This document shows positions 73 to 20,703 of a DNA stretch of 20,703 bases, piece after piece (position 1 is the first letter of the stretch; every line of letters starts with the position of its first letter). Source of the DNA: a virus; the IMG/VR virus record IMGVR_UViG_3300033553_000181, positions 1 through 20,703 of that record; one strand, written 5' to 3'. The translations under genes and the position numbers were made by a program. The notes under the pieces were generated by a model. That model saw only the letters and a list, made by a program, of their open reading frames with translations, was not told the origin of the DNA and made no database searches.

Positions 73-387
73 TTAACGAAAAACTTTATAGTGCCAGCTG
101 CCGGCAATCGTAAAAACTGCCAAGTCAACCGTGAGCGTAGCATCATCAACGGCCATGACCCGGCTGGGCCTGATCCGCTGGCCGCTGTCGTCCCACACTG
201 CAACATCAACAAAACGCTCAGTCAGGCTATGGTTAATGGTGAGGATCCCGGCCACCAGGTCAGCGGCCACAAAAGGAGTGGCGATGCCGTTGGTAGCATC
301 AGCACCTGCCGGACCGGCCGGACCAATGGGGCCTTGCGGGCCGGCAGGGCCTGTTTCCCCTTTAGGACCGGGAACGGATGCTTCCAC
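73..387 (-). CDS. Collagen-like phage fibre protein
   Basis: The 104-residue product has two parts. Residues 7-30 are eight G-X-Y triplets rich in proline and alanine, the pattern of a collagen-like triple helix. Residues about 45-104 form a beta-rich domain (INHSLTERFVDVAVWDDSGQ, then IRPSRV, then a TLTVDL strand and a final GSWHYKV strand) resembling a small C-terminal domain common on phage fibres and spikes. The start is GTG at 387-385; its G overlaps the TAG stop of the gene before, and GAGGAAG lies just upstream, so translational coupling is likely. Collagen stalks in phages usually make trimeric fibres on tail or capsid; which one applies here is inferred. It lies at the distal end of the visible structural operon, where fibre or appendage genes are common. 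Confidence 0.72.
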   Translation of the reverse strand: MEASVPGPKGETGPAGPQGPIGPAGPAGADATNGIATPFVAADLVAGILTINHSLTERFVDVAVWDDSGQRIRPSRVMAVDDATLTVDLAVFTIAGSWHYKVFR

Positions 388-740
388 TACACTTCCTCAA
401 CATTAAAGGGTATAATCTCCCCCTTCGCATTGCGCTCGATATGGCAGCGGTAGGTCTTCTTCGGTTTCGGCTTGTGCATCTCCTGCATCATATCCAGTAT
501 TGCGCCCTGAGTGGCGATAATACCGGCGGTGTTGGCTTCGCTCGCTTTGGCGACGGTGAGCAGGGCGGCAATGGTTTGTTCGGAAATGGCTTCTTCGACC
601 GGCTCTTTTGTTTCCGCTTTCACTTCCGGCTTAACATGCTTGCGTCGGGGAAAATAAGGTTTGCCGGCGGAGGTCTTGAGGGGCTTGCCGGACTGGCGCC
701 TGGCACTGATCAGTTCGTCATCGGAAAAGACTCGGCTCAT
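387..740 (-). CDS. Small charged helical phage protein, function unknown
   Basis: The chosen start is the ATG at 740-738, giving 117 residues. It overlaps the TAA stop of the giant gene upstream (TAATG) and has GGGAGG six bases before it; a longer version from 758 has no reason to be preferred. Residues 1-45 are basic and probably disordered (RRQSGKPLKTSAGKPYFPRR). Residues about 50-90 look like one long helix (EEAISEQTIAALLTVAKASE onward), possibly a coiled coil. The C-terminus (YRCHIERNAKGEIIPFNVEE) looks like a small beta hairpin. The N-terminal VFSDDEL resembles the YLSDEDV motif at the start of the giant upstream protein. I do not recognise a family. The position suggests a minor virion or fibre-associated protein. 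Confidence 0.65.
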   Translation of the reverse strand: MSRVFSDDELISARRQSGKPLKTSAGKPYFPRRKHVKPEVKAETKEPVEEAISEQTIAALLTVAKASEANTAGIIATQGAILDMMQEMHKPKPKKTYRCHIERNAKGEIIPFNVEEV

Positions 741-3700
741 TACTTGCCTCCCATACACGTTCTCAATTTCTGGTAAATATCAAGGTCGGCGTCTATACGG
801 GCCAGTTCCTTATGCGCATCAACGAGCACACCCTCAACAGGAACACCTCTCGTGTCAAACCCGTCAATCTTGATCTCCACCCCGGCCAGCTGCTCCTTGG
901 TGAAGGTCTGAAGCTGTGTAGATTCTACATTATTTTCAGGAGTTGCAACAGGTTTATCAGACTCTACTTTAAGTTTTTTTAAGGTATCAACCTCACCATC
1001 CACCGCAACAACCGGGGCCTCACTAGCCGCCCCGGTATTCTCTAATTGCGCGGCGCTGTCATTGCCGGGGGAAGCAACGTCAGCCGCCTGATTGTCCTGC
1101 TGTGCCGTCTTACCTCCTTCTGGTTGAGGTTGATCTGCTTCATTGGTGGCCTCTGGGTTGGCTTGCGCAAGGTCTGGGTAGTCTGCCAGGACACTATCAG
1201 GAACGGCCTTACCCTCGGCAATGGCATGTTTCACCTGTTCTTGATGGAGATCCCTTGAATATTGGTTTCTCTGCTCCTGATACCATGCCCACGAAAAAGG
1301 CTCATTTTTTCCTATATGATAAAACGCGCTCTCATACTGGTTGTAGGTTCCCTTTCTGTTGGATAGTTTTTCAGAGATAGAGCCTTTCCCGGCAATACTC
1401 TTAGAGGAGGCAATGAGTTTCCCGTCTTTTCCGTAAGCCTCATAGATATAACTTCCACTGCCGATATCCCTCTGAACGGTCACATAAGAGATCCAGTCAT
1501 TATCTTGATAGCTCGCCATCTCTTCAAGGTGTTCATTCAGCCCATCTACAAACTCACTTTTTGTTTGTTCCCACATCTTCTTTCTTGTGGGCTCGGCCGG
1601 GGTGTCTTGCCCTGGATCGGTGGCACTATCCGTGGTGGTTTTGGTATTCTCGACAACAAGGGTATTTCCTTCTCCTTGGGTGAAGGCATAAGCAGGCTTA
1701 CCATCCTTGTCGGTGCCGAAAACCTCAGACTGACGCATTGACGCCCCGTGTTCTTCGCTCGCGTACAACTTCAACGCTCTGGCTACCCTGTGGGCGTCTT
1801 CCTTGGTGCCGTCATGGGGGGCGGATATCTTTATTGCCTCGCCGTCTCCATTCAACGGTCTTGCGTTCATCAGGACCATATTAGGACCGGAAGCCACCTC
1901 CTTGCCGGTTTTTATGCCGGGCCTGACCACCTCAAGGTTGCTTTCCGATTCCGCAATGGAATCAGCAAGGCTCGGTTCTTTTGGAGCTCCGGAAATGTCA
2001 CCGGAAATGTCACCCGCAACAGCTTGATCTTGTTGCTGATCGGCCACATCTGCCGTTTTATTTGTCACGCTATTTGTCACGCTATTGTCGCCGGCCAGAT
2101 ACTTCTCCCGAATAAAGAAACCGCCATCCTTTTTGAAGGTGTACTTGTCAATAGCCTGGGCCTCTTCCTTGGTGAGATCGGTGCGGACAATGCCCTTGAT
2201 GATCTTACCCTTGCCGCCCTTGGTGACGTGCTCGACCAGATCCAGAGTTTGTGTCTCACTATTGGCCGTTTCGTTAACGTCAACGGGCTTTGTCGTTAAT
2301 TCTTGAGACTCAACAGCCTGACCGACGACTGCCCCTTTCTTCGGTGCCGACGACTTGACCCACTCCCTGAACTTGTCCACCGGCATCTTGACCACGGACT
2401 TGCCGCCATCCCAGCCTGATTCATAGTTGGAGTTATAAACCTCCATAGCCTCGGCCTCGCTGGTGACACCCAGCACAACCTTATGCTCATCGAATTTGCC
2501 GTCCTTGTTATGCTGATTGACGATATAGGCATCCTGGGACCCGCCTTGATACCCGGGAGCCATCACCACGTCTACATGGTCCTTGTCGTAGCCTACCGAC
2601 CCTTTCACATAGCCATAGTCCGCTTTCATCTCGATAGACCAGGCCTTGCCGTCCTTATCGGTACCGCTACGGGTTGTCCCGGCTGGATTCTCGACGGTGA
2701 TATTCAGGCCATCAAGAGAGACATGGGCCTTCTTATAGTTACCGGCCTCCGCCATGGCCTCAGACGGTGCGGCATTAACCTCCTGGCCGTGCGCCACTGA
2801 ATCAGGATTGGCGATGATCGCGTGATTGGTTGGCTCACTCGCCTCAACTGCCTCTGCCGGCCGATATATCCCTGCTTGTGCCGGAATAACATTACTGCCC
2901 GCCCATAGGGTTCTGCCGGACGCATCAACTCTGCCCTTCACGTCCTGAATGTCTGCGTCTTTCCTAGTGGCGATAAAGCCGCTGTTGGTTGCCGGGTCCG
3001 GGGTTACGTTGTAGCCTGCCAGATCGATGTTGTTGTCTGCGGCGTGTTTCTTGAGGATTGATTCGGATAGGAAGCCTTGGCCGTCAGGTTGGGCTATGAT
3101 CGAGGGGGCTGGCTTGCCATCGGGAATTCTGTCCACGGTGGTTGCTGGACTGGTATCTTCTCCAGGACTCGCCCCCATCTCTTTTTGTGGATCTCCTCCC
3201 AATCTTGCCGGGTCAACGCCATTGATTCCTCCGGACTGGTCGGCCACAACTGCGGGTTGTCCGGGTTGTTCATTCTGCGTTCCTTGATCCTGTGGACCCA
3301 TTACCTGCTGTGAAGGGAGAGCACCGATGCCGCCCATGGCCAGGGCCTTACTAATTACACCGGTCGGTGCTGGTGGCTGTATGACTGGTGCGGCCGGTGG
3401 TGCTGGTGCGGCCGGTGGTGGCTGAGACGGGGTATCGTTTGCCGGGGTGGCAATGCCGTTTGCGGCCGGGTTGGTGTTCTCGGGGATGGTTGGTTCTGCC
3501 GCAGGATCTTCGACAACAGTGCTTGAAGCGGATGGCAGCATATTGGCGGCCCCACCCATAAAGCCACCCACCACAAGACCTTGTGCGGCTGACTCCGGCA
3601 CGCCTTCCATGAGAGGCTTACCAAGGGCCGCATTCTGGAACATCGTTTCCTGGATGGACTGCGGCAGCTCTTCAAATGCGCCCTCACTGATACCGCCGCC

Positions 3701-4459
3701 GATGATCCGTTTCGCAATCTCGGCAACACCAACTTTCTCGCCTGCAGGATTGAGTGTGCCCATGGCCAGCATGGTATCAGGATCGGCAAAGCCCAGCTTC
3801 TGCGCCAATCGTCCACCAGCCAGGCCAAAGGCGGACGTGCCGATACCGGCGAGCCCTGAATACATGGCGCCCTTGGCCGTCAGTTCCTTATCGGGCATCT
3901 GCTGCCGTATGTCTTCAGCCATACTGCCGGCACCAATAACGCCTTCTCCGGTTGCGCCGGCAATGGTTCCCAAAGTGGCAGGCGCGAACCGGGTAGCAAG
4001 TTTTGGCGCAAGTTTTGTGATGCCATTCCTTGCTACGGCGCCTACTCCGCCACCGGCCAGCATCAGCGGTACCGTTTCAACTATTGCATGGCCGATGGTG
4101 CTTGGGTTCTTCACCATCGCGCCGACCGTCCCAACGAATCCTTCTGCGCTCCCTACTTTTGCATTCGCCTCTTTCTGCGGGTCTGAGTACAGGTCGGAAA
4201 GGGTATTCTGCGTAAGGGTGGGGTCGTAGCCGAGCTTATCCATTCCCCTGCCAACAAGACCGCCAGTAGCCAGGTTGCCGAGACCTACGGCAGCGGAGCC
4301 AAGGCCGACAACACCTTTTGCCGCCGTGACGCCGATATCGGCAGCGGTACCGAGGACGGTTCTTCCAGGCTTGGTGCCATAAACCTCTTCATCAGACAGA
4401 TATCCGCTCTTCTCTTTAGGAGGTCCATAGACATCTTCGTCTGAAAGGTAGTCGCTCAT
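740..4459 (-). CDS. Giant polyvalent-type virion/ejection protein with inorganic-pyrophosphatase-like domain
   Basis: The product has 1239 residues in several blocks. Residues 4-12 and 20-28 carry a duplicated motif (YLSDEDVYG, YLSDEEVYG). Residues about 33-310 are rich in Gly/Ala hydrophobic segments, like the membrane-active N-termini of phage ejection proteins, with a conserved-looking stretch near 250-300 (EGAFEELPQSIQE). A Pro/Ala-rich linker follows (about 330-400). Residues about 575-702 match the InPase domain of polyvalent proteins: YGYVKG at 615-620, DKDHVD at 625-630, FDEHKVVLG at 656-664 and a FREWV end. The three Asp of the DxDxxD signature are kept. A segment near DKYTFKKDGGFFIREKYL is also typical of such proteins. 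The C-terminal about 45 residues (VDAHKELARIDADL, ending CMGGK) look like a conserved tail. Polyvalent proteins are thought to be delivered with phage DNA to counter host defences; that role here is inferred. A sigma70-like promoter lies just upstream. Confidence 0.85.
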   Translation of the reverse strand: MSDYLSDEDVYGPPKEKSGYLSDEEVYGTKPGRTVLGTAADIGVTAAKGVVGLGSAAVGLGNLATGGLVGRGMDKLGYDPTLTQNTLSDLYSDPQKEANAKVGSAEGFVGTVGAMVKNPSTIGHAIVETVPLMLAGGGVGAVARNGITKLAPKLATRFAPATLGTIAGATGEGVIGAGSMAEDIRQQMPDKELTAKGAMYSGLAGIGTSAFGLAGGRLAQKLGFADPDTMLAMGTLNPAGEKVGVAEIAKRIIGGGISEGAFEELPQSIQETMFQNAALGKPLMEGVPESAAQGLVVGGFMGGAANMLPSASSTVVEDPAAEPTIPENTNPAANGIATPANDTPSQPPPAAPAPPAAPVIQPPAPTGVISKALAMGGIGALPSQQVMGPQDQGTQNEQPGQPAVVADQSGGINGVDPARLGGDPQKEMGASPGEDTSPATTVDRIPDGKPAPSIIAQPDGQGFLSESILKKHAADNNIDLAGYNVTPDPATNSGFIATRKDADIQDVKGRVDASGRTLWAGSNVIPAQAGIYRPAEAVEASEPTNHAIIANPDSVAHGQEVNAAPSEAMAEAGNYKKAHVSLDGLNITVENPAGTTRSGTDKDGKAWSIEMKADYGYVKGSVGYDKDHVDVVMAPGYQGGSQDAYIVNQHNKDGKFDEHKVVLGVTSEAEAMEVYNSNYESGWDGGKSVVKMPVDKFREWVKSSAPKKGAVVGQAVESQELTTKPVDVNETANSETQTLDLVEHVTKGGKGKIIKGIVRTDLTKEEAQAIDKYTFKKDGGFFIREKYLAGDNSVTNSVTNKTADVADQQQDQAVAGDISGDISGAPKEPSLADSIAESESNLEVVRPGIKTGKEVASGPNMVLMNARPLNGDGEAIKISAPHDGTKEDAHRVARALKLYASEEHGASMRQSEVFGTDKDGKPAYAFTQGEGNTLVVENTKTTTDSATDPGQDTPAEPTRKKMWEQTKSEFVDGLNEHLEEMASYQDNDWISYVTVQRDIGSGSYIYEAYGKDGKLIASSKSIAGKGSISEKLSNRKGTYNQYESAFYHIGKNEPFSWAWYQEQRNQYSRDLHQEQVKHAIAEGKAVPDSVLADYPDLAQANPEATNEADQPQPEGGKTAQQDNQAADVASPGNDSAAQLENTGAASEAPVVAVDGEVDTLKKLKVESDKPVATPENNVESTQLQTFTKEQLAGVEIKIDGFDTRGVPVEGVLVDAHKELARIDADLDIYQKLRTCMGGK
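1989..2089 (-). repeat. Short in-frame tandem repeats in the linker of the giant protein
   Basis: Two separate 12-bp perfect duplications lie close together. Positions 1989-2000 and 2001-2012 repeat CCGGAAATGTCA (plus strand) and encode GDISGDISG. Positions 2059-2070 and 2071-2082 repeat TATTTGTCACGC, with a shortened third copy to 2089, and encode a TNSVTNSVTN run. Both lengths are multiples of three, so the frame is kept. They lie in a region rich in Asp, Gln and Ser that is probably disordered. Replication slippage is the simplest origin. Confidence 0.8.
2867..2890 (-). repeat. Decayed VIPAQAGI-type palindromic element inside a coding region
   Basis: On the minus strand the bases ATTCCGGC-ACAA-GCAGGGAT (2887-2868) form an imperfect palindrome; six of eight arm positions pair. 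In the reading frame they encode VIPAQAGI, residues 524-531 of the giant protein. This peptide is the usual translation of a short dispersed palindromic repeat found across many proteobacterial genomes (the dRS3/REP-like ATTCC...GGAAT class). The surrounding protein is low-complexity linker. The match is short, so origin from a host repeat is an inference. Confidence 0.5.
3385..3420 (-). repeat. 18-bp perfect tandem repeat coding a Pro/Ala linker
   Basis: Positions 3385-3402 and 3403-3420 are identical 18-base units (CTGGTGCGGCCGGTGGTG on the plus strand). On the coding strand they produce the Pro/Ala-rich stretch PPAAPAPPAAP near residues 347-358 of the giant protein. The unit keeps the reading frame and sits between the membrane-active N-terminal part and the central domains. 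Confidence 0.8.
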
Positions 4460-4583: not shown

Positions 4584-5879
4584 TTAAGCCGGTTTCCATC
4601 CCTTTCCGTCCCATATAATCGGAACGCCGCTCGCGCTGACTGCTTTATGACCAACTGGCAAACCCTTTGTCTCTTTAGGGGGAGGGGTTAAAGCCTGTGA
4701 CCCCTTCTGTACCTGGATCTCTTCATAGGTCTCCGGGTCAACAAGGATTGTCTCGGAACCCATGCCGTCAGCGGTTGCCCTGGTCATGGTAATGGGTCGC
4801 TGCTTCTTGTCGGTCTTGCCCTGCCTTAATCTGATCTCGTCGGCTATGGCCTGTTTGTTTTCGGCTGGCACATTAGGATCGTTGTATTGGGCAAAGAGGT
4901 TGTTGAGAGCCTGGGTCTGGTCGAGTCCTAACTGTTTGCCCTGGTTGTCGAGGGTATGGCCTTCCCGAACTGGGCCATCGTTATCGTAGTTCAGATCCTG
5001 GCCCCGGCCTGTTAGTAAATCCCGGCGCAGGTTGCCGTCTGCCGTCAGGTCTTGACCCCTCACATCAATGTCTTGACCGCGCATGGCGATATTGTTTTTA
5101 TCGGCATCATTAAAGGCTTGCTGCTTTTGCAGATCAGCTTTCTGGCCCCAGCGGGAGGTTATCATTGACCCCATAGAGGACATATCCACGTCCATAATTT
5201 CCGGTCGGGCTATTTCCGGCCTTGCGATTGTTTGACGTTGACCTGATGGCTGGCCTAATGCTTGACGGCTGGGATTATTGGCTTCATATATGGCGCTCTT
5301 CGTGAAGCGGTCCCGCTCGTCGGCTGGCATCCCATCAAACTCGACATCCAGGTTGCCTATTCGGTTGCCTTGGTTACTGACTGGGTTTTTAATTAAATTA
5401 TTGCGTAACGGCAAATGTTCCGTGCCCGGTGTTACCGTAATGGACCCTTTACCACCATCGGCCTGCTGTAATGACACCTTGTTCGTATTGGTCACGTTAT
5501 CAGGTTGGCCTACGGTTTCTCTGGCGGCCGCACCCATTGGCGGCCTAGTTATCGGTTGAAAGGCTTTCGGCCTGGGGAAATTACCACCGGCGATATCCTG
5601 CTGCAACTGGCCGCCGAAGGCTTGTAGTCGTTTATTCTTCTCCGGGTAACCCTTTAAGGCGTCATTCTGGCGGGCATTGGCTTGTTGCAATCCTGTAACC
5701 GGAGCCATCATGCTTCGACCAAGGGCGCGACCACCGGCCCCGCCTGCATATTTGTCAGCCACATTGGCGGCAGTGCGAAGCCCGCCTTTGATGGCATCAA
5801 CATTGGCCTGTTGGGCCTTGGCCGTCGGGGTGCCGGGGGCGAACTGGTTGTACGGTTTTTTATCTTGTGGCCATGCCAT
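4584..5879 (-). CDS. Probable internal virion protein, low-complexity and repeat-containing
   Basis: The product has 431 residues. The ATG is preceded by AAGGAG seven bases upstream. The first 100 residues are Ala/Gly/Gln-rich, with a GGAGGRALGR stretch near 46-55. Residues 220-228 duplicate RPEI (ARPEIARPEI). Residues about 267-298 hold three RGQD copies (MRGQDIDVRGQDL, then GRGQDLN), a pattern frequent in phage internal virion proteins that form long helices. The C-terminus (IIWDGKGWKPA) looks like a compact strand motif. I recognise no enzyme. Its place between the helical 321-residue protein and the giant protein suggests a protein packaged in the capsid or tail and ejected with DNA. Confidence 0.7.
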   Translation of the reverse strand: MAWPQDKKPYNQFAPGTPTAKAQQANVDAIKGGLRTAANVADKYAGGAGGRALGRSMMAPVTGLQQANARQNDALKGYPEKNKRLQAFGGQLQQDIAGGNFPRPKAFQPITRPPMGAAARETVGQPDNVTNTNKVSLQQADGGKGSITVTPGTEHLPLRNNLIKNPVSNQGNRIGNLDVEFDGMPADERDRFTKSAIYEANNPSRQALGQPSGQRQTIARPEIARPEIMDVDMSSMGSMITSRWGQKADLQKQQAFNDADKNNIAMRGQDIDVRGQDLTADGNLRRDLLTGRGQDLNYDNDGPVREGHTLDNQGKQLGLDQTQALNNLFAQYNDPNVPAENKQAIADEIRLRQGKTDKKQRPITMTRATADGMGSETILVDPETYEEIQVQKGSQALTPPPKETKGLPVGHKAVSASGVPIIWDGKGWKPA

Positions 5880-5895: not shown

Positions 5896-6861
5896 TTATG
5901 AAAATGAGTTCTGGCCGGTACTGACGATACTGTTTAAGGACGATAAGGCAGAAGCGGCAACTTTGGCATAGGCATCAGCCGCTGACGATGCTGCCAACAC
6001 ATTGCCGTCAATCTTGCGCTGGATAGCATTAAGCCAGGTCTGTTCGTGCTGAACACTGGCGCTCATCCGGTTATCCTGGGAGCCTAACACTAATTGATCT
6101 CTGGTTAATCTGGCCCGATACAAATCAGAAGTGGCGGCCATCATCTTCGCCTTGGCATCGGTATTAATCCCGGCCAGACGACTAGCGGCATCAGGGGCGG
6201 TCATCAGGGAACGGATATAATCGCTGGCGCTGCTCATGGCTTTGAAGCGGCAATCAATGGCGTTGGTAATGGCAAACTTGATTGACTCAATAACTATCTC
6301 CGCCTGCTTGGTGGCGATGGTGGTAGAGGCTTCCCCGATCTTAGAGGCCTGTTCATAACGGGCTTGGTTGAGGTCGTGGACCATCGGCCCTTGCGGGAGG
6401 GAAAAACCACGGGCGGAGTAACTGCTGGTGATGGACGCAGCCACTCTCGTTCCGTCCTTAATAATTCTACTTCGCGCCCGCTGCCAAATTTGTTCTTCAA
6501 CCGCTGCCGGTATCCCGGTGCCGCCGTTGGTGATGGTGTTTATCAGCCAGCTTTGGGCCTCGTCAAAGGCGTCCGAGGTCAACGGGTAATAGGTAGTAAA
6601 ATAGCCAGCCAACTGCCCCGATAACAGGCCGATCAGGTTACTCAGCTGGGCGTCATAGGTCAGTAGCGAATTTTCAACAGCGGGAACGTCCGGTTCAACA
6701 GCAGTTAATTCATGGGTCGGCACATAGTAATTAGTGCCCATGCTGCGCCCTTCACTGAGGTCCAACACCCGATCAGCTGCCGTATCAACATTAGCCGTGG
6801 CATTATTGGCCGTGGCCAAGGTGTTTTCAATAATCTGATTGATAAACTCTTTCGGTGTCAT
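5896..6861 (-). CDS. Helical podovirus tail or ejection protein, function unknown
   Basis: The 321-residue product is almost all alpha-helical by composition. It contains IWQRARSRIIKDGTRVA and RGFSLPQGPMVHDLNQAR near residues 125-170. This resembles a pattern (W-RAR-R, then GF-LP-G) that I associate with a family of podovirus structural proteins, placed next to tail genes and often called hypothetical or tail protein. The second half has long Ala/Ser-rich helices ending SALSSLNSIVSTGQNSFS. The ATG at 6861 overlaps the stop of the preceding tail gene (ATGA), with GAGGA nearby, so the two are probably translated together. A role in ejection or the tail tube is inferred from position; the family assignment is from memory. 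Confidence 0.68.
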   Translation of the reverse strand: MTPKEFINQIIENTLATANNATANVDTAADRVLDLSEGRSMGTNYYVPTHELTAVEPDVPAVENSLLTYDAQLSNLIGLLSGQLAGYFTTYYPLTSDAFDEAQSWLINTITNGGTGIPAAVEEQIWQRARSRIIKDGTRVAASITSSYSARGFSLPQGPMVHDLNQARYEQASKIGEASTTIATKQAEIVIESIKFAITNAIDCRFKAMSSASDYIRSLMTAPDAASRLAGINTDAKAKMMAATSDLYRARLTRDQLVLGSQDNRMSASVQHEQTWLNAIQRKIDGNVLAASSAADAYAKVAASALSSLNSIVSTGQNSFS

Positions 6862-8628: not shown

Positions 8629-9126
8629 TCAGTTCACGATAACTTGAGAGGGATAGGAAGTGAAGCCGTAAAAGAGATAGAACCAAGTCCCTTGCGTGGT
8701 ATTCCAAGCGCCGATAAAAGTACCGGATAGGTACGGAGTGGGTAGGAAGGCCAGTGGTCTCCCTAGCAAGCCGTTATTCTGGATGGCGGTCAAGGCTCGA
8801 TGCCATTCATCTTTCAAGGCTGTGCGTCTGCTGGCCAGATTTACCCCGGAGAGAATAGCGGCGGCGTAATTATCATAGAAAGGGCGAACCGTTGATGCGT
8901 ACCTGGTTTCCGCTTGCGTGGCTCTTCTGATATATTGGCCTAAAGGTGGAGTCGCCGGGGCCACCCACGTTACTAAACTGTCCGTGGGCGTGATCTGCTC
9001 GATAGCGGTAACTGGTGAGCGGTCACTCCAATAACCAGCTCTCGCGGCCACACCGGGCGAGCCAGCCGTACCCGGCACACCGGCGGCTGTCACATCAACA
9101 GTAAAGTCTTTGATTAATTGAGTCAT
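8629..9126 (-). CDS. Small phage tail-region protein, function unknown
   Basis: The product has 165 residues. The ATG overlaps the TGA stop of the propeller gene (ATGA). The N-terminus includes GVPGTAGSPGVAARAG, a short glycine/proline stretch. The centre (RRATQAETRYASTVRPFYDN through RRTALKDEWHRAL) looks helical, and the C-terminal 40 residues (GAWNTTQGTWFYLFYGFTSY, PSQVIVN) look like beta strands with many aromatics. No family is recognised. The tight linkage with the propeller gene suggests the two act together, for example as connector and receptor-facing part. Confidence 0.62.
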   Translation of the reverse strand: MTQLIKDFTVDVTAAGVPGTAGSPGVAARAGYWSDRSPVTAIEQITPTDSLVTWVAPATPPLGQYIRRATQAETRYASTVRPFYDNYAAAILSGVNLASRRTALKDEWHRALTAIQNNGLLGRPLAFLPTPYLSGTFIGAWNTTQGTWFYLFYGFTSYPSQVIVN

Positions 9127-10034
9127 ATCAAGACCTCAGATTGACTGTGAAGCGATTGCCAAAAAGGCGGGACGGTCAGATCATAATCCAACCATGTCCC
9201 ATCAGGGGATGTGGCTACTTTGTCATAATTATTTGAGATGGCACAAAAAACAGTACCATTCCAAGCAATAGCATTCCATGTCAACGAATATGGCATAGTG
9301 TGAGCGGTCCATGTTATGCCATCAGGAGAGGTTGCCGTTTTGTTGGAGTTATATTTGATGGCGCAGAATAGCGTGCCGTTCCAGGCTACAGCCCGCCACC
9401 CGTTTGCATAAGCTGAAACTGTTTGTTTGGTCCATGTAATGCCGTCAGGAGAGGTGGCCACATTATCCGAGGCATAGTTAATTGCACAAAATATTGTTCC
9501 GTTCCATATTATATCTTGCCAACTGTATGAATCAATGAGGGCGTACGGTGCCCATGTCCATGTTATGCCATCAGATGAGGTTGCCACATCACCGAACTCC
9601 GAGATGGCACAAAAAACAGTACCATTCCAAGCAATTCCTATCCATGTCCTTTCAGCCGGCAGGGTCCGCTGGGTCCAGGTTATGCCATCGGGCGAAGTGG
9701 CGGCAATATCGGTCCAACTGGAGGCCAGGGCGCAAAACACCGTGCCGTTCCAGGCAAGCGCGTACCAGGCGCTTGAGACTGGAAGTGTTCCTTGTGTCCA
9801 AACTATCCCGTCTGATGATGTCGCGGAGACACTGCCACCTACCGCACAAAAAACAGAGCCGTTCCACTCGATCGCTAACCAACCCCCTAACGGAATCGTC
9901 CTCTGCATCCATGTCCTGCCATCTTGTGAGGTCGCGGCGACAGTACCATCGGCTACAGCACAAAAGACAGTGCCGTTCCAAGCAATTGCGGCCCATGCGC
10001 TTGACACCGGCATTGTTGATTTTACAGATATCAT
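9123..10034 (-). CDS. Seven-repeat beta-propeller-like tail protein
   Basis: The 303-residue product consists of seven repeats beginning at W14, W52, W90, W131, W172, W213 and W253, with spacings of 38, 38, 41, 41, 41 and 40. Each has the form W-x-x-I-A-W-N-G-T-V-F-C-A followed by A-T-S-x-D-G-x-x-W-T. The SxDGxTW part resembles the Asp-box of BNR/sialidase-type propellers but is one residue shorter. Seven repeats plus an N-terminal strand (MPVSS) that matches the end of repeat 2 suit a closed seven-bladed propeller. Every repeat has one Cys at the same place. No sialidase catalytic residues are evident, so binding of a host surface glycan is a better guess than cleavage. The ATG has no clear ribosome binding site and follows the previous stop by three bases, which suggests coupling. 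Confidence 0.82.
   Translation of the reverse strand: MISVKSTMPVSSAWAAIAWNGTVFCAVADGTVAATSQDGRTWMQRTIPLGGWLAIEWNGSVFCAVGGSVSATSSDGIVWTQGTLPVSSAWYALAWNGTVFCALASSWTDIAATSPDGITWTQRTLPAERTWIGIAWNGTVFCAISEFGDVATSSDGITWTWAPYALIDSYSWQDIIWNGTIFCAINYASDNVATSPDGITWTKQTVSAYANGWRAVAWNGTLFCAIKYNSNKTATSPDGITWTAHTMPYSLTWNAIAWNGTVFCAISNNYDKVATSPDGTWLDYDLTVPPFWQSLHSQSEVLI
9235..9269 (-). repeat. 35-bp exact direct repeat in the propeller gene, copy in blade 7
   Basis: This 35-base segment is identical to 9601-9635. It encodes IAWNGTVFCAIS from residue 256. The offset between copies is 366 bases, exactly three repeat units (122 codons). Other blades share the amino-acid motif but differ in codon choice, so this identity points to recent duplication or gene conversion rather than only protein-level conservation. 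Confidence 0.9.
9601..9635 (-). repeat. 35-bp exact direct repeat in the propeller gene, copy in blade 4
   Basis: This is the second copy of the repeat at 9235-9269 and encodes IAWNGTVFCAIS from residue 134. The bases on both sides differ at once, so the identity is confined to the core strand region of the blade. Recombination between the copies would delete or duplicate three blades without shifting the frame. Confidence 0.9.
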
Positions 10035-16373: not shown

Positions 16374-17675
16374 TTACAGCTTGGCCGCTGAGTCGATTAC
16401 AAAAACGCCATTATCGGTTGGTTCCTTATTGCCCGCACCATCATCAAAGGTGAAGGTGAGCTTGGCCATGCCGCCCATGGATTCACCGGCAACTTCCATA
16501 TTGCGCTCAAAGTTGTACAGGTTCTCCATCCAGTTGAAGCCGGTATCAGAACCCTGATTGCGCCCGAAGACATAAGCAAGGGCCTGGGCTCCAAGAAGCA
16601 GAGCGCGGTCAACGCCGTGGGTTCCAGACAAGGCTGGGATCGTAACGTCAGTCTCTGTCTGCGCGGCCAAATAGCGATTGGCGACGGTGTGATACTTGAC
16701 ACCGGTGGTGCCGGGCGCAAAGCGGATGGCGAACTTGGGCTGTTTCCGCATCAGGATACCGGCCCACATGATACACTCACCGGAAAAGAGTGGGTGCTTG
16801 GAACCGTAACTCTTGCGAGCCCAGGCGTTCTGGGTGGCAGTGGCGAAAGACACACCGTTGGCGGCAGTGGCAGCGGCCTTGATTTGCGCCCACTGACGCT
16901 CGGTAAGATAAAGCAGGCCCTTGATTGGCTCGTCATCGGCTGCCGGGTCATCAGCAATCTTGACCGGCTGCAGGCCCATATTGTGATCGCTGATAAGGGT
17001 AGCCAGTTCATCAACATGGCCAAGGGTCCACAGATCGGTGGTGGCAATACTTGCAAGCTGTGCGCCTCCCTGGGTGAATCCGGTCCCATTGACAACCAAA
17101 TGGCGGTTATAGGTGGGTGCCTTCACAGTATTGACCATAATCTCGGAGAAATCAGGGTCAGTTGACAGAGGAACAACCCAATCTTTGCCGGTCTGAGTGC
17201 CACGGGCACCAGCCAGATGAACAAGGGCCTGCTGGCTGTGCAGACGGGGGAAATAACCAAGCAACTGCGCCATAGCCAGGCCGCGCAGCTGGTTGACAGT
17301 GCGCTGCTGGGCCATCTTGCCGCCAGCATCAACAACCTTAGTGGTGTTGTCGATCTTGATATCCTGGCTGGAGCTTGACAGTGCCTCGCCCTGACCTTCA
17401 GCGTTACGGTCGCCCATGATCGGCTTGCCGCTGATAGTATCGAAGCAGTCCACATTGACGGTTTCACCGGCAGACTTGGACAGATCGGTCACCCGGACAA
17501 TCGGCATATCCGGTACGGTCTGGCCTTTCAGTTTGGCCTCGGCATCGGACTGTTTGGGAGCGGGACCGGTCAGGCCCTTGAGCAGTGACGCCGCGGTAAC
17601 GACCTTGGCGAAGAGTGCAGCGCCAAAGACTTTGCGCGCCATTGCGGAACCGGTAGGTACGGTAGTTTGAGCCAT
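16374..17675 (-). CDS. Major capsid protein, N4 gp56 / HK97-fold type
   Basis: The product has 433 residues, within the usual range for this capsid family. The ATG has AAGGAG eight bases upstream. Features I associate with the N4 gp56-like capsid family (Phage_capsid_3/DUF4043 type) include an N-terminal region with AKVVTAASLLKGLTG, VRVTDLSKSAGETVNVDCFD, a GQGEALSSSSQDIKIDNTTK stretch, QQRTVNQLRGLAMAQLLGYF, LLYLTERQWAQIKAAAT, KHPLFSGECIMWAGILMRK and a C-terminal DRALLLGAQALAYVFGRNQG followed by NWMENLYNFERNMEV. Position after a scaffold-like gene supports it. It assembles the icosahedral shell. A strong terminator ends only 25 bases before its start codon, an unusual arrangement. Confidence 0.88.
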   Translation of the reverse strand: MAQTTVPTGSAMARKVFGAALFAKVVTAASLLKGLTGPAPKQSDAEAKLKGQTVPDMPIVRVTDLSKSAGETVNVDCFDTISGKPIMGDRNAEGQGEALSSSSQDIKIDNTTKVVDAGGKMAQQRTVNQLRGLAMAQLLGYFPRLHSQQALVHLAGARGTQTGKDWVVPLSTDPDFSEIMVNTVKAPTYNRHLVVNGTGFTQGGAQLASIATTDLWTLGHVDELATLISDHNMGLQPVKIADDPAADDEPIKGLLYLTERQWAQIKAAATAANGVSFATATQNAWARKSYGSKHPLFSGECIMWAGILMRKQPKFAIRFAPGTTGVKYHTVANRYLAAQTETDVTIPALSGTHGVDRALLLGAQALAYVFGRNQGSDTGFNWMENLYNFERNMEVAGESMGGMAKLTFTFDDGAGNKEPTDNGVFVIDSAAKL

Positions 17676-19236: not shown

Positions 19237-20703
19237 CTACACCTGATCCTCGAGAGTTTCTTGCACGCCATCTGCCCGCATCGTCTCAATTCCGGCTTGT
19301 TCACCGATGAATGGCGATGCTGGCAATGGGGTATCTGTAGTGCTTGTCGTCTGTGCTTCAGCGGCAGGCGCTCGTAATTCCGCAGGCACATCCGGAACAT
19401 CAATCTCCGGGAAGTTCGCCGCCTTCAGCAGTTCATCGGCAATGGGTGCGACATGGGGCACTGTGGCGATTACCTGGCCGGCCTGCATACTCGCATAGAT
19501 AGCCTTGACCATCTCCGCTACCGTTCCCGCGTCGGTCTTCTTGTTCTGACTGATAAGCTGATCAACCTTCATTTCCAGGAGCTTGACGTTGGCCTCGCTG
19601 GTTCTCTGCTCCAGGGCAGCCAATGCGGCGGCGGTCTGGCTGGCCTGGGCGTCGGCTGCAGCTTGTTCTTCGTCGGACAGCTTCGGCCCGAGTCCGGCCA
19701 TCTTCCTGATCTCTTCCGCCAGCTCTTCCTTATCCGGGGCATCCGATAGCAGGATCATGGCCGGGACAAAGACCGCCTGCATCTCCGGGGGCAGAGACTT
19801 GGCTACTTCACTCAGAATAGCCAGCTGCTGGGCCTTGAAAGAGGCGGTGGTTGGAATATCAGTCAACGTCACTTTGGCTTTGACTGAGGAGATGTCATTC
19901 TCAATTGTCTCCGCGCCGGTATTATCCTGCGTCCGCTGATTCAGGACCACGATGGACTTCTTGCCCTGCTGTTTGATTGCCACCCGGATCTCTTTTTTAC
20001 CCATATCCTCAAGCTGCAAGGCAAAAAGCATCTCCCCCACCTGGCGGCGCGCGAAAGAGGCATTGTCGTTGATCTCGGCCATCATCACGCCAGTCTGTTC
20101 AATCAGGCTGTTGATACCGATACCTGAAGTGGCCGCACCTTCCTTGCCCATTGATGCCTTAAAGATGCCGCCGGCCGATTCAATGTCGTTGGCGGCCTGC
20201 ATCCTTCGGTTGAACTGTTGGGCGTTGAGGTTAAACTCGGATTCAATCTTAAATTGTGCCTGTGGTTTGGTGGGATCCAGCAGAACAACAGCGTTCGGGC
20301 TTGATACCTGGTCTTGCACCTGGCGCCATGAGTTGTATTTCAGGTCAATGGCGTCACTGCTGGCAGTAATGCGCCGGGAGTTCAACAGCCAGTGCATCTT
20401 AGCATCGGCAGAGTTCACCACGTCCTGCGGCGATATCATGCCGCGGATCATGCCGTACCTGATACCCGACGAATCCTCTTTGTAGCCAAAGAACGGCACA
20501 TAAGGGAAATAGCGGTGCGGGTATGGTGTCGGCATATCGTAGAGCCGATGACAGCCAAGAAAGAAGGCAACCCGGATATCCGAGTAGGTCTTAGTCTGCG
20601 GCTTAATGAAACCCTGGGCAACTGCCATGGCGTGTCGTGGATCTTTTGGGTCAAACTTGACCATCGATCCATCCGGCAACTCCAAAACCTTGCCTCTCAC
20701 CCA
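19237..20703 (-). CDS. Portal protein, P22-like, 5' end missing
   Basis: The reading frame is open to the window edge (TGG at 20703-20701), so the GTG at 20700 is internal and the true start is outside. The 488 visible residues include PHRYFPYVPFFGYKED, IRYGMIRGMISPQDVVNSAD, MHWLLNSRRITASSDAI, NDNASFARRQVGEMLFALQL and KEIRVAIKQQGKKSIVVLNQ, a pattern typical of P22-type portals. Residues about 340-420 are Ala/Gln-rich helices (AALAALEQRTSEANVKLLEM), consistent with a barrel or C-terminal helical extension, and the end is Pro/Thr/Asp-rich. Portal forms the twelve-subunit ring at one vertex through which DNA enters and leaves. Terminase genes should lie just beyond the window. Confidence 0.88.
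   Translation of the reverse strand, partial: WVRGKVLELPDGSMVKFDPKDPRHAMAVAQGFIKPQTKTYSDIRVAFFLGCHRLYDMPTPYPHRYFPYVPFFGYKEDSSGIRYGMIRGMISPQDVVNSADAKMHWLLNSRRITASSDAIDLKYNSWRQVQDQVSSPNAVVLLDPTKPQAQFKIESEFNLNAQQFNRRMQAANDIESAGGIFKASMGKEGAATSGIGINSLIEQTGVMMAEINDNASFARRQVGEMLFALQLEDMGKKEIRVAIKQQGKKSIVVLNQRTQDNTGAETIENDISSVKAKVTLTDIPTTASFKAQQLAILSEVAKSLPPEMQAVFVPAMILLSDAPDKEELAEEIRKMAGLGPKLSDEEQAAADAQASQTAAALAALEQRTSEANVKLLEMKVDQLISQNKKTDAGTVAEMVKAIYASMQAGQVIATVPHVAPIADELLKAANFPEIDVPDVPAELRAPAAEAQTTSTTDTPLPASPFIGEQAGIETMRADGVQETLEDQV

What the first reader, a model, noticed from the sequence alone, without database searches (positions are those of the whole stretch)
740..4459. Giant late protein carries an inorganic-pyrophosphatase-like domain
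Residues about 575-702 read as the InPase domain described for polyvalent proteins of phages and conjugative elements, with YGYVKG, DKDHVD and FDEHKVVLG. The three Asp of the pyrophosphatase DxDxxD signature are kept, though the flanking positions differ (Lys and His instead of small and Pro/Glu). It sits in the ejection-protein block of the structural operon with its own promoter, so it may be injected with DNA. A delivered enzyme acting on pyrophosphate or a nucleotide signal could counter host defence or aid early replication. The domain match is from memory of the family; the function is inferred.
Basis: partly seen in the sequence, partly recalled or inferred. Interest (0 to 1): 0.75.

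Follow-up and report, generated by a model that had tools for sequence, protein, structure and literature searches.

The report
Phage entry protein with pyrophosphatase-like domain
A phage protein that is probably packed into the virus particle and injected with its DNA carries a stripped-down relative of the enzyme that splits pyrophosphate; the domain family was predicted in 2017, but I found no report that anyone has tested what it does.

Summary
The 1239-aa ORF at 740-4459 (-) matches Pfam InPase (PF18823), E 5.7e-47, residues 568-702. An AlphaFold model of the domain returns only type I inorganic pyrophosphatases among the 50 best PDB hits, though global overlap is modest (TM 0.3-0.46). 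The metal-site acids (E590, D625, D627, D630, D657/E658) and K660 are kept across distant relatives. The beta-hairpin, with the positions of E. coli K29, E31, R43 and Y51, is gone; R597 and Q649 are invariant instead. The family and its probable virion delivery were published by Iyer et al. 2017, so this is a new member of a known kind. The protein is a short form of 2743-5970-aa relatives; InPase is its only recognisable enzyme, on a helical N-terminal module shared with other giant phage proteins. Gene order places it where ejection proteins lie. The claimed promoter is no better than chance. I favour a virion-delivered phosphoanhydride hydrolase; nucleotide signal and pyrophosphate both remain possible substrates. 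Unexpected: a short motif duplicated at the extreme N-terminus occurs in 52 of 97 such proteins against 12 of 291 internal windows, possibly a packaging or ejection signal.

The parts
740..4459 (-). 1239-aa InPase-bearing protein (short form of a polyvalent giant)
   Evidence: ORF; Pfam and PHROG hits; start supported by L003 aligning from residue 1
4424..4456 (-). first copy of N-terminal motif, residues 2-12 SDYLSDEDVYG
   Evidence: self-duplication p 0.005 by shuffling; residues 1-31 have pLDDT below 50
4376..4408 (-). second copy of N-terminal motif, residues 18-28 SGYLSDEEVYG
3545..4357 (-). all-helical Gly/Ala-rich N-terminal module, residues 35-305, probably the virion/ejection part
   Evidence: AlphaFold2 pTM 0.67; best BFVD matches are giant phage proteins, 3 at E<1e-3; sequence relatives in Epa33/F116
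2354..2758 (-). InPase domain, residues 568-702
   Evidence: PF18823 E 5.7e-47; AlphaFold2 pLDDT 86; Foldseek top 50 all type I pyrophosphatases
2690..2692 (-). E590, aligned with E. coli pyrophosphatase E20; invariant
2570..2617 (-). Y615-G-Y ... D625-x-D627-x-x-D630 metal-site motif (E. coli Y55, D65, D67, D70)
2480..2491 (-). D657-E658-H659-K660 motif (E. coli D102 and K104 region)
   Evidence: D, E and K invariant in an unbiased set, H659 replaced by D or E in three divergent members
2093..2239 (-). small module that follows InPase, residues 741-789
   Evidence: 60-71% identical in L007-L011; found in the MTase-helicase gene next to solo InPase in Bordetella phage PHB04
740..2092 (-). C-terminal region, residues 790-1239, no detectable relatives
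   Evidence: no relatives of residues 741-1120 in viral contigs; phage tblastn of 741-1239 finds only 741-789
387..758 (-). 123-aa downstream ORF, overlaps the stop end of the InPase gene; follows the short form also in contig G008
   Evidence: tblastn match next to the 1118-aa short form; no Pfam hit
4584..5879 (-). 431-aa ORF upstream, possible second ejection protein
   Evidence: homologue in the same place in G002
5896..6861 (-). 321-aa ORF, relative of Epa33 'structural protein 4'
16374..17675 (-). major capsid protein (PF13252)
19237..20703 (-). P22-type portal protein, cut by the window end
   Evidence: PF16510 E 1.2e-60

Best explanation
The gene makes a late virion protein. Its helical N-terminal module, probably with the duplicated N-terminal motif, places it in the particle, and it enters the host with the DNA (inferred from gene order and shared module). 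Its InPase domain is a divergent type I pyrophosphatase fold that keeps the two-metal site and so probably cleaves phosphoanhydride bonds early in infection (fold and residues tested, activity inferred). Because the hairpin that carries several pyrophosphate-contacting residues is missing, and hosts already have their own pyrophosphatase, I lean slightly to a nucleotide-type substrate, such as a defence or alarm signal, over free pyrophosphate. The delivered-hydrolase part I hold at 0.6; the nucleotide-substrate step alone at about 0.4.
For: PF18823 E 5.7e-47. Foldseek top 50 are all type I pyrophosphatases, probability mostly 1.00. Profile search of PDB: a Pbunavirus portal at 9e-42, then mostly pyrophosphatases at weak E 0.04-1.1. 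hhalign with cellular pyrophosphatases, pairwise E 6e-5 to 2e-4. Metal-site residues and K660 kept in 76 relatives and in 13 members found without a motif filter. pN/pS 0.28-0.39 with saturated synonymous sites. Same place as 'structural protein 5' in Epa33, gene order shared. N-terminal fold shared with giants, some annotated RelA/SpoT, LT_GEWL, GNAT or RNA polymerase. Fused to portals whose barrel points into the head. Genomes with the InPase locus carry a cellular type I enzyme in 17 of 18 cases.
Against: No mass spectrometry or assay exists for this phage. Global TM to pyrophosphatases is only 0.3-0.46 with rmsd 7-11 A. Residues contacting substrate in E. coli are absent, so it could be inactive. 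Portal residues 529-765, which hold the domain, have no density. The argument from host pyrophosphatase is only suggestive.
Confidence: 0.6

Rival explanations
1. It clears pyrophosphate made by phage replication or transcription near the incoming genome, acting as an ordinary pyrophosphatase.
For: Fold and metal-site residues of type I pyrophosphatase kept; proposed by Iyer et al. 2017; some phages carry it as a solo gene.
Against: K29, E31, R43 and Y51 positions missing; genomes that carry the InPase locus nearly all have a cellular type I enzyme, so a few injected copies would add little.
Confidence: 0.3
2. It removes a host nucleotide signal, such as a defence second messenger or alarmone, before the cell can respond (the substrate version I lean to within the best explanation).
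For: Open pocket expected from the missing hairpin; invariant R597 and Q649; solo InPase in Bordetella phage PHB04 lies with an HD-type (p)ppGpp-hydrolase-like gene and a calcineurin-like phosphoesterase beside the portal; Iyer et al. note NUDIX and TmrB neighbours.
Against: One informative neighbourhood only; no PADLOC match; no ligand evidence.
Confidence: 0.4
3. The domain is catalytically dead and serves as a structural or DNA/metal-binding part of the virion.
For: Substrate residues lost; the domain is fused to portals, a structural setting.
Against: Metal-site acids and K660 are kept across sequences down to about 32% identity, stronger than structure alone would need; solo versions exist away from structural genes.
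Confidence: 0.15
4. The short form is a decayed or misassembled fragment of a giant DarB-like protein.
For: Relatives with 36-47% identical N-termini run on for thousands of residues, with helicase, ART and LPD domains in L003/G002.
Against: A second short form (1118 aa, G008) has a similar C-terminal tail and is followed by the same 123-aa ORF.
Confidence: 0.07

Closest known systems
InPase domain of phage polyvalent proteins (PF18823; Iyer et al. 2017, PMC5512222)
   Same: Same domain family, no beta-hairpin, phage late-gene setting, predicted virion packaging.
   Different: Here InPase is the only recognisable enzyme of a 1239-aa protein, whereas the polyvalent class is defined by several domains.
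Type I (family I) soluble inorganic pyrophosphatase (PF00719, E. coli Ppa)
   Same: Fold class, E20/Y55/D65/D67/D70/K104 equivalents and an acidic residue at D102.
   Different: No direct PF00719 match at E 0.1; hairpin and K29, E31, R43, Y51 positions missing; D97 equivalent variable; fused to a virion-type protein.
Pbunavirus portal C-terminal domain (Pa193/E217 gp19, residues about 635-759)
   Same: Same domain (E 9e-42) attached to a virion protein inside the head.
   Different: Fused to the portal; that part is unresolved in both structures.
DarB-like giants of Hollowayvirus and IMG/VR contigs
   Same: N-terminal helical module, gene position, duplicated N-terminal motif.
   Different: They also carry methylase, helicase or ART domains; Epa33 lacks InPase.

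Membership tests
InPase PF18823 | profile match above curated cut-off | tested here: met
   159.4 bits against 26.8
InPase PF18823 | type I pyrophosphatase fold lacking the beta-hairpin between strands 1 and 2 | tested here: met
   Foldseek top hits all type I enzymes; 8-residue deletion there in both MAFFT and hhalign alignments; TM below 0.5 is a caveat
Type I inorganic pyrophosphatase | direct match to PF00719 | tested here: not met
   no such hit at E 0.1
Type I inorganic pyrophosphatase | DxDxxD plus further acidic metal ligands | tested here: met
   D625, D627, D630, E590, D657/E658
Type I inorganic pyrophosphatase | PROSITE-type signature D-[SGDN]-D-[PE]-[LIVMF]-D-[LIVMGAC] (pattern from memory) | tested here: not met
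   DKDHVDV has Lys and His at positions 2 and 4
Type I inorganic pyrophosphatase | substrate residues K29, E31, R43, Y51 | tested here: not met
   no conserved counterparts
Type I inorganic pyrophosphatase | hydrolysis of pyrophosphate | not testable with these tools
   needs an assay
Phage polyvalent protein | several distinct effector domains in one polypeptide | tested here: not met
   only InPase is recognised; an unknown domain in 790-1239 cannot be excluded
Phage polyvalent protein | encoded among virion genes | tested here: met
   portal, capsid and connector genes on the same strand; order conserved
Phage polyvalent protein | present in virion and injected | not testable with these tools
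   needs mass spectrometry or a delivery assay
DarB antirestriction protein | N6-methylase plus SF2 helicase | tested here: not met
   absent from the 1239-aa protein

The most novel reading that the evidence does not exclude
InPase domains of phages are not pyrophosphatases but injected hydrolases of a host nucleotide signal, made by losing the pyrophosphate-gripping hairpin; in this short form the enzyme is the sole payload of a modular ejection protein addressed to the virion by a duplicated N-terminal motif.
Probability: 0.25. Interest if true: 0.7.

Novelty: new member of a known kind. Interest (0 to 1): 0.38.

Why it matters
InPase domains occur in hundreds of sequenced phages, including therapeutic Pbunavirus phages where the domain sits on the portal inside the head, yet no activity was found reported in the literature searched. 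A short protein with this one enzyme is a tractable subject for finding the substrate. The duplicated N-terminal motif, if it is a packaging or ejection address, could help to mark injected phage proteins from sequence alone.

Tried and rejected
Promoter for the gene: one site where 1.8 are expected, dropped. A hidden enzyme in residues 790-1239: no relatives found, so it was not modelled. N-terminal module against PDB: no hit below E 0.2. PADLOC: no match. Rfam and tRNA scans of the window: nothing. Duplicated motif as a universal address of head-injected proteins: P1 DarB, DdrB and DarA lack it, although P1 DdrA shows one; portal-fused and solo InPase mostly lack it, and so does the Vibrio phage douglas 12A4 giant. 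Invariance of FDEHK in A2 is partly built in by the scan pattern, so it was rechecked on an unfiltered set. Fragment or assembly error: unlikely given G008.

Full report
The observation. The window is a 20.7-kb virus contig. One ORF, 740-4459 on the minus strand, encodes 1239 aa. Pfam gives a single convincing family, InPase PF18823, at residues 568-702, E 5.7e-47; PHROGs matches are to giant proteins, DarB-like antirestriction proteins, minor head proteins and others over the same stretch.

Is it a pyrophosphatase fold? Three lines agree. A profile from 76 relatives searched against the PDB finds first the Pa193 portal (E 9e-42), then mostly type I pyrophosphatases at weak E-values (0.04 to 1.1), aligned over or near YG[YF]I...DxDxxDV. 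A profile-profile comparison with cellular pyrophosphatases (18 sequences) gives pairwise E 6e-5 to 2e-4. An AlphaFold2 model (pLDDT 86, pTM 0.82) searched with Foldseek returns only inorganic pyrophosphatases in its top 50, E from 2e-4. The caveat is real: TM-scores are 0.3-0.46 and rmsd 7-11 A, so the resemblance is local or core-level, and the tools do not return coordinates to measure the acidic cluster.

Active site. Mapped on E. coli numbering: E20 to E590, Y55 to Y615, D65 to D625, D67 to D627, D70 to D630, K104 to K660; D102 falls on D657 or E658, both invariant. K29, E31, R43 and Y51 have no conserved counterpart, because about eight residues are missing where the hairpin lies; the absence of the hairpin is already in Iyer et al. 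2017, its consequence for these residues is my reading of the alignment. R597 and Q649 are invariant. The 76-row set was collected with a motif pattern, so I repeated the check on 13 members found by tblastn (portal-fused, solo, jumbo-phage and cyanophage): E590, R597, Y615, D625, D630, Q649, D657, E658 and K660 stay invariant, position 627 is D or E, 659 is H, D or E, and the D97 position varies. pN/pS of 0.28-0.39 with saturated or near-saturated synonymous sites shows purifying selection.

The protein around it. It is a short form. Relatives in virus contigs have open frames of up to 2743-5970 aa, and those scanned add strawberry-notch or SNF2-type helicase, methylase, ART or LPD domains. 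A second short form, G008 with 1118 aa, has a similar C-terminal tail and is followed by the same 123-aa ORF as in the window, so the short form is a real architecture. Residues 35-305 are predicted all-helical (pTM 0.67); the best viral structure matches are pieces of other giant phage proteins, three below E 1e-3 and weaker ones annotated RelA/SpoT, LT_GEWL, RNA polymerase and GNAT. No PDB structure matches. A 50-residue module follows InPase (residues 741-789) in several relatives, and in Bordetella phage PHB04 it lies in the separate methylase-helicase gene just after a solo InPase gene. The rest of the C-terminus has no relatives.

Is it in the virion? Not shown. For it: it is encoded with portal, capsid and connector genes; the order head closure, structural genes, giant protein is shared with Epa33, where the homologue is annotated structural protein 5, and with three IMG/VR contigs; InPase is fused to portals or head proteins in BcepF1, Pbunavirus and others. 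In E217 the portal barrel projects into the head and only residues 97-528 of 765 were built; in Pa193 residues 529-765 had no density. So the one related PDB chain does not show the domain. InPase is rare in cellular genomes: apart from the centre genome, 1 of 142 genomes drawn from its class passes the cut-off, and 17 of 18 genomes that carry the InPase locus have a separate cellular type I enzyme.

Mechanism. Shown: fold class, kept metal-site residues, missing substrate residues, gene order. Inferred: packaging, injection, hydrolysis, substrate. I favour an injected phosphoanhydride hydrolase and lean to a nucleotide-type substrate, because the pyrophosphate-holding side is rebuilt and the host already has pyrophosphatase. 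Free pyrophosphate remains a close rival, and both were proposed in 2017. Searches of the open-access library for InPase, PF18823 or pyrophosphatase with phage terms found no experimental test of the domain; subscription papers are not covered.

An unexpected pattern. Residues 2-12 and 18-28 of the protein are two copies of one motif. Testing the first 70 residues of 97 non-redundant proteins (the window protein, its InPase relatives and the InPase-free Epa33 giant) against shuffles, 52 have a self-duplication at p 0.02 or less, against 12 of 291 internal windows. Each phage has its own version (GLFDDTQ, NHFDKFD, NPFDQFDA, PWEEF, GPWEKYQ; longer units in loci from Bacteroidota). Among 149 ORFs of seven phage contigs the large protein shows it in six of seven, with six other ORFs also at p 0.02 or less, about three being expected. 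Portal-fused and solo InPase mostly lack it (two portals are borderline at 0.02-0.03), as do P1 DarB, DdrB and DarA. It lies in a low-confidence, probably disordered tail and is not mentioned in Iyer et al. by a term search. A packaging or ejection address is a plausible but untested reading.

Verdict. New member of a known kind.

Noticed in passing
window 4376-4456 and relatives L002-L174: Short motif duplicated at the extreme N-terminus of InPase-bearing giants: 52 of 97 against 12 of 291 internal windows; sequence differs from phage to phage.
   Followed up: partly
L216 1893-14807 (Bordetella phage PHB04): Portal, HD_4 (p)ppGpp-hydrolase-like gene, calcineurin-like phosphoesterase, solo InPase and methylase-helicase gene lie in one stretch.
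   Followed up: partly
PDB 9b41 / Pa193 and E217 gp19 (not in window): The InPase domain of Pbunavirus portals lies in the part with no density, inside the head; a term search for 'pyrophosphat' finds nothing in either paper.
   Followed up: partly
window 9123-10034: 303-aa ORF built of about 38-residue repeats (WNGTVFCAV...ATSPDGITWT), like a beta-propeller tail protein.
   Followed up: no
window 73-387: 104-aa ORF with a collagen-like stretch (PF01391 E 2.4e-4, below cut-off), probably a tail-fibre piece.
   Followed up: no
plasmid records, (not in window): All 36 plasmid records with an InPase relative are typed non-mobilizable; they may be phage-plasmids.
   Followed up: no
L222 27542-27907 (P1 ddrA): P1 DdrA has a 20-residue N-terminal self-duplication (p 0.003), unlike DarA, DarB and DdrB.
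   Followed up: no
window 740-2092 (residues 790-1239): C-terminal 450 residues have no detectable relatives in viral contigs or phage records.
   Followed up: partly
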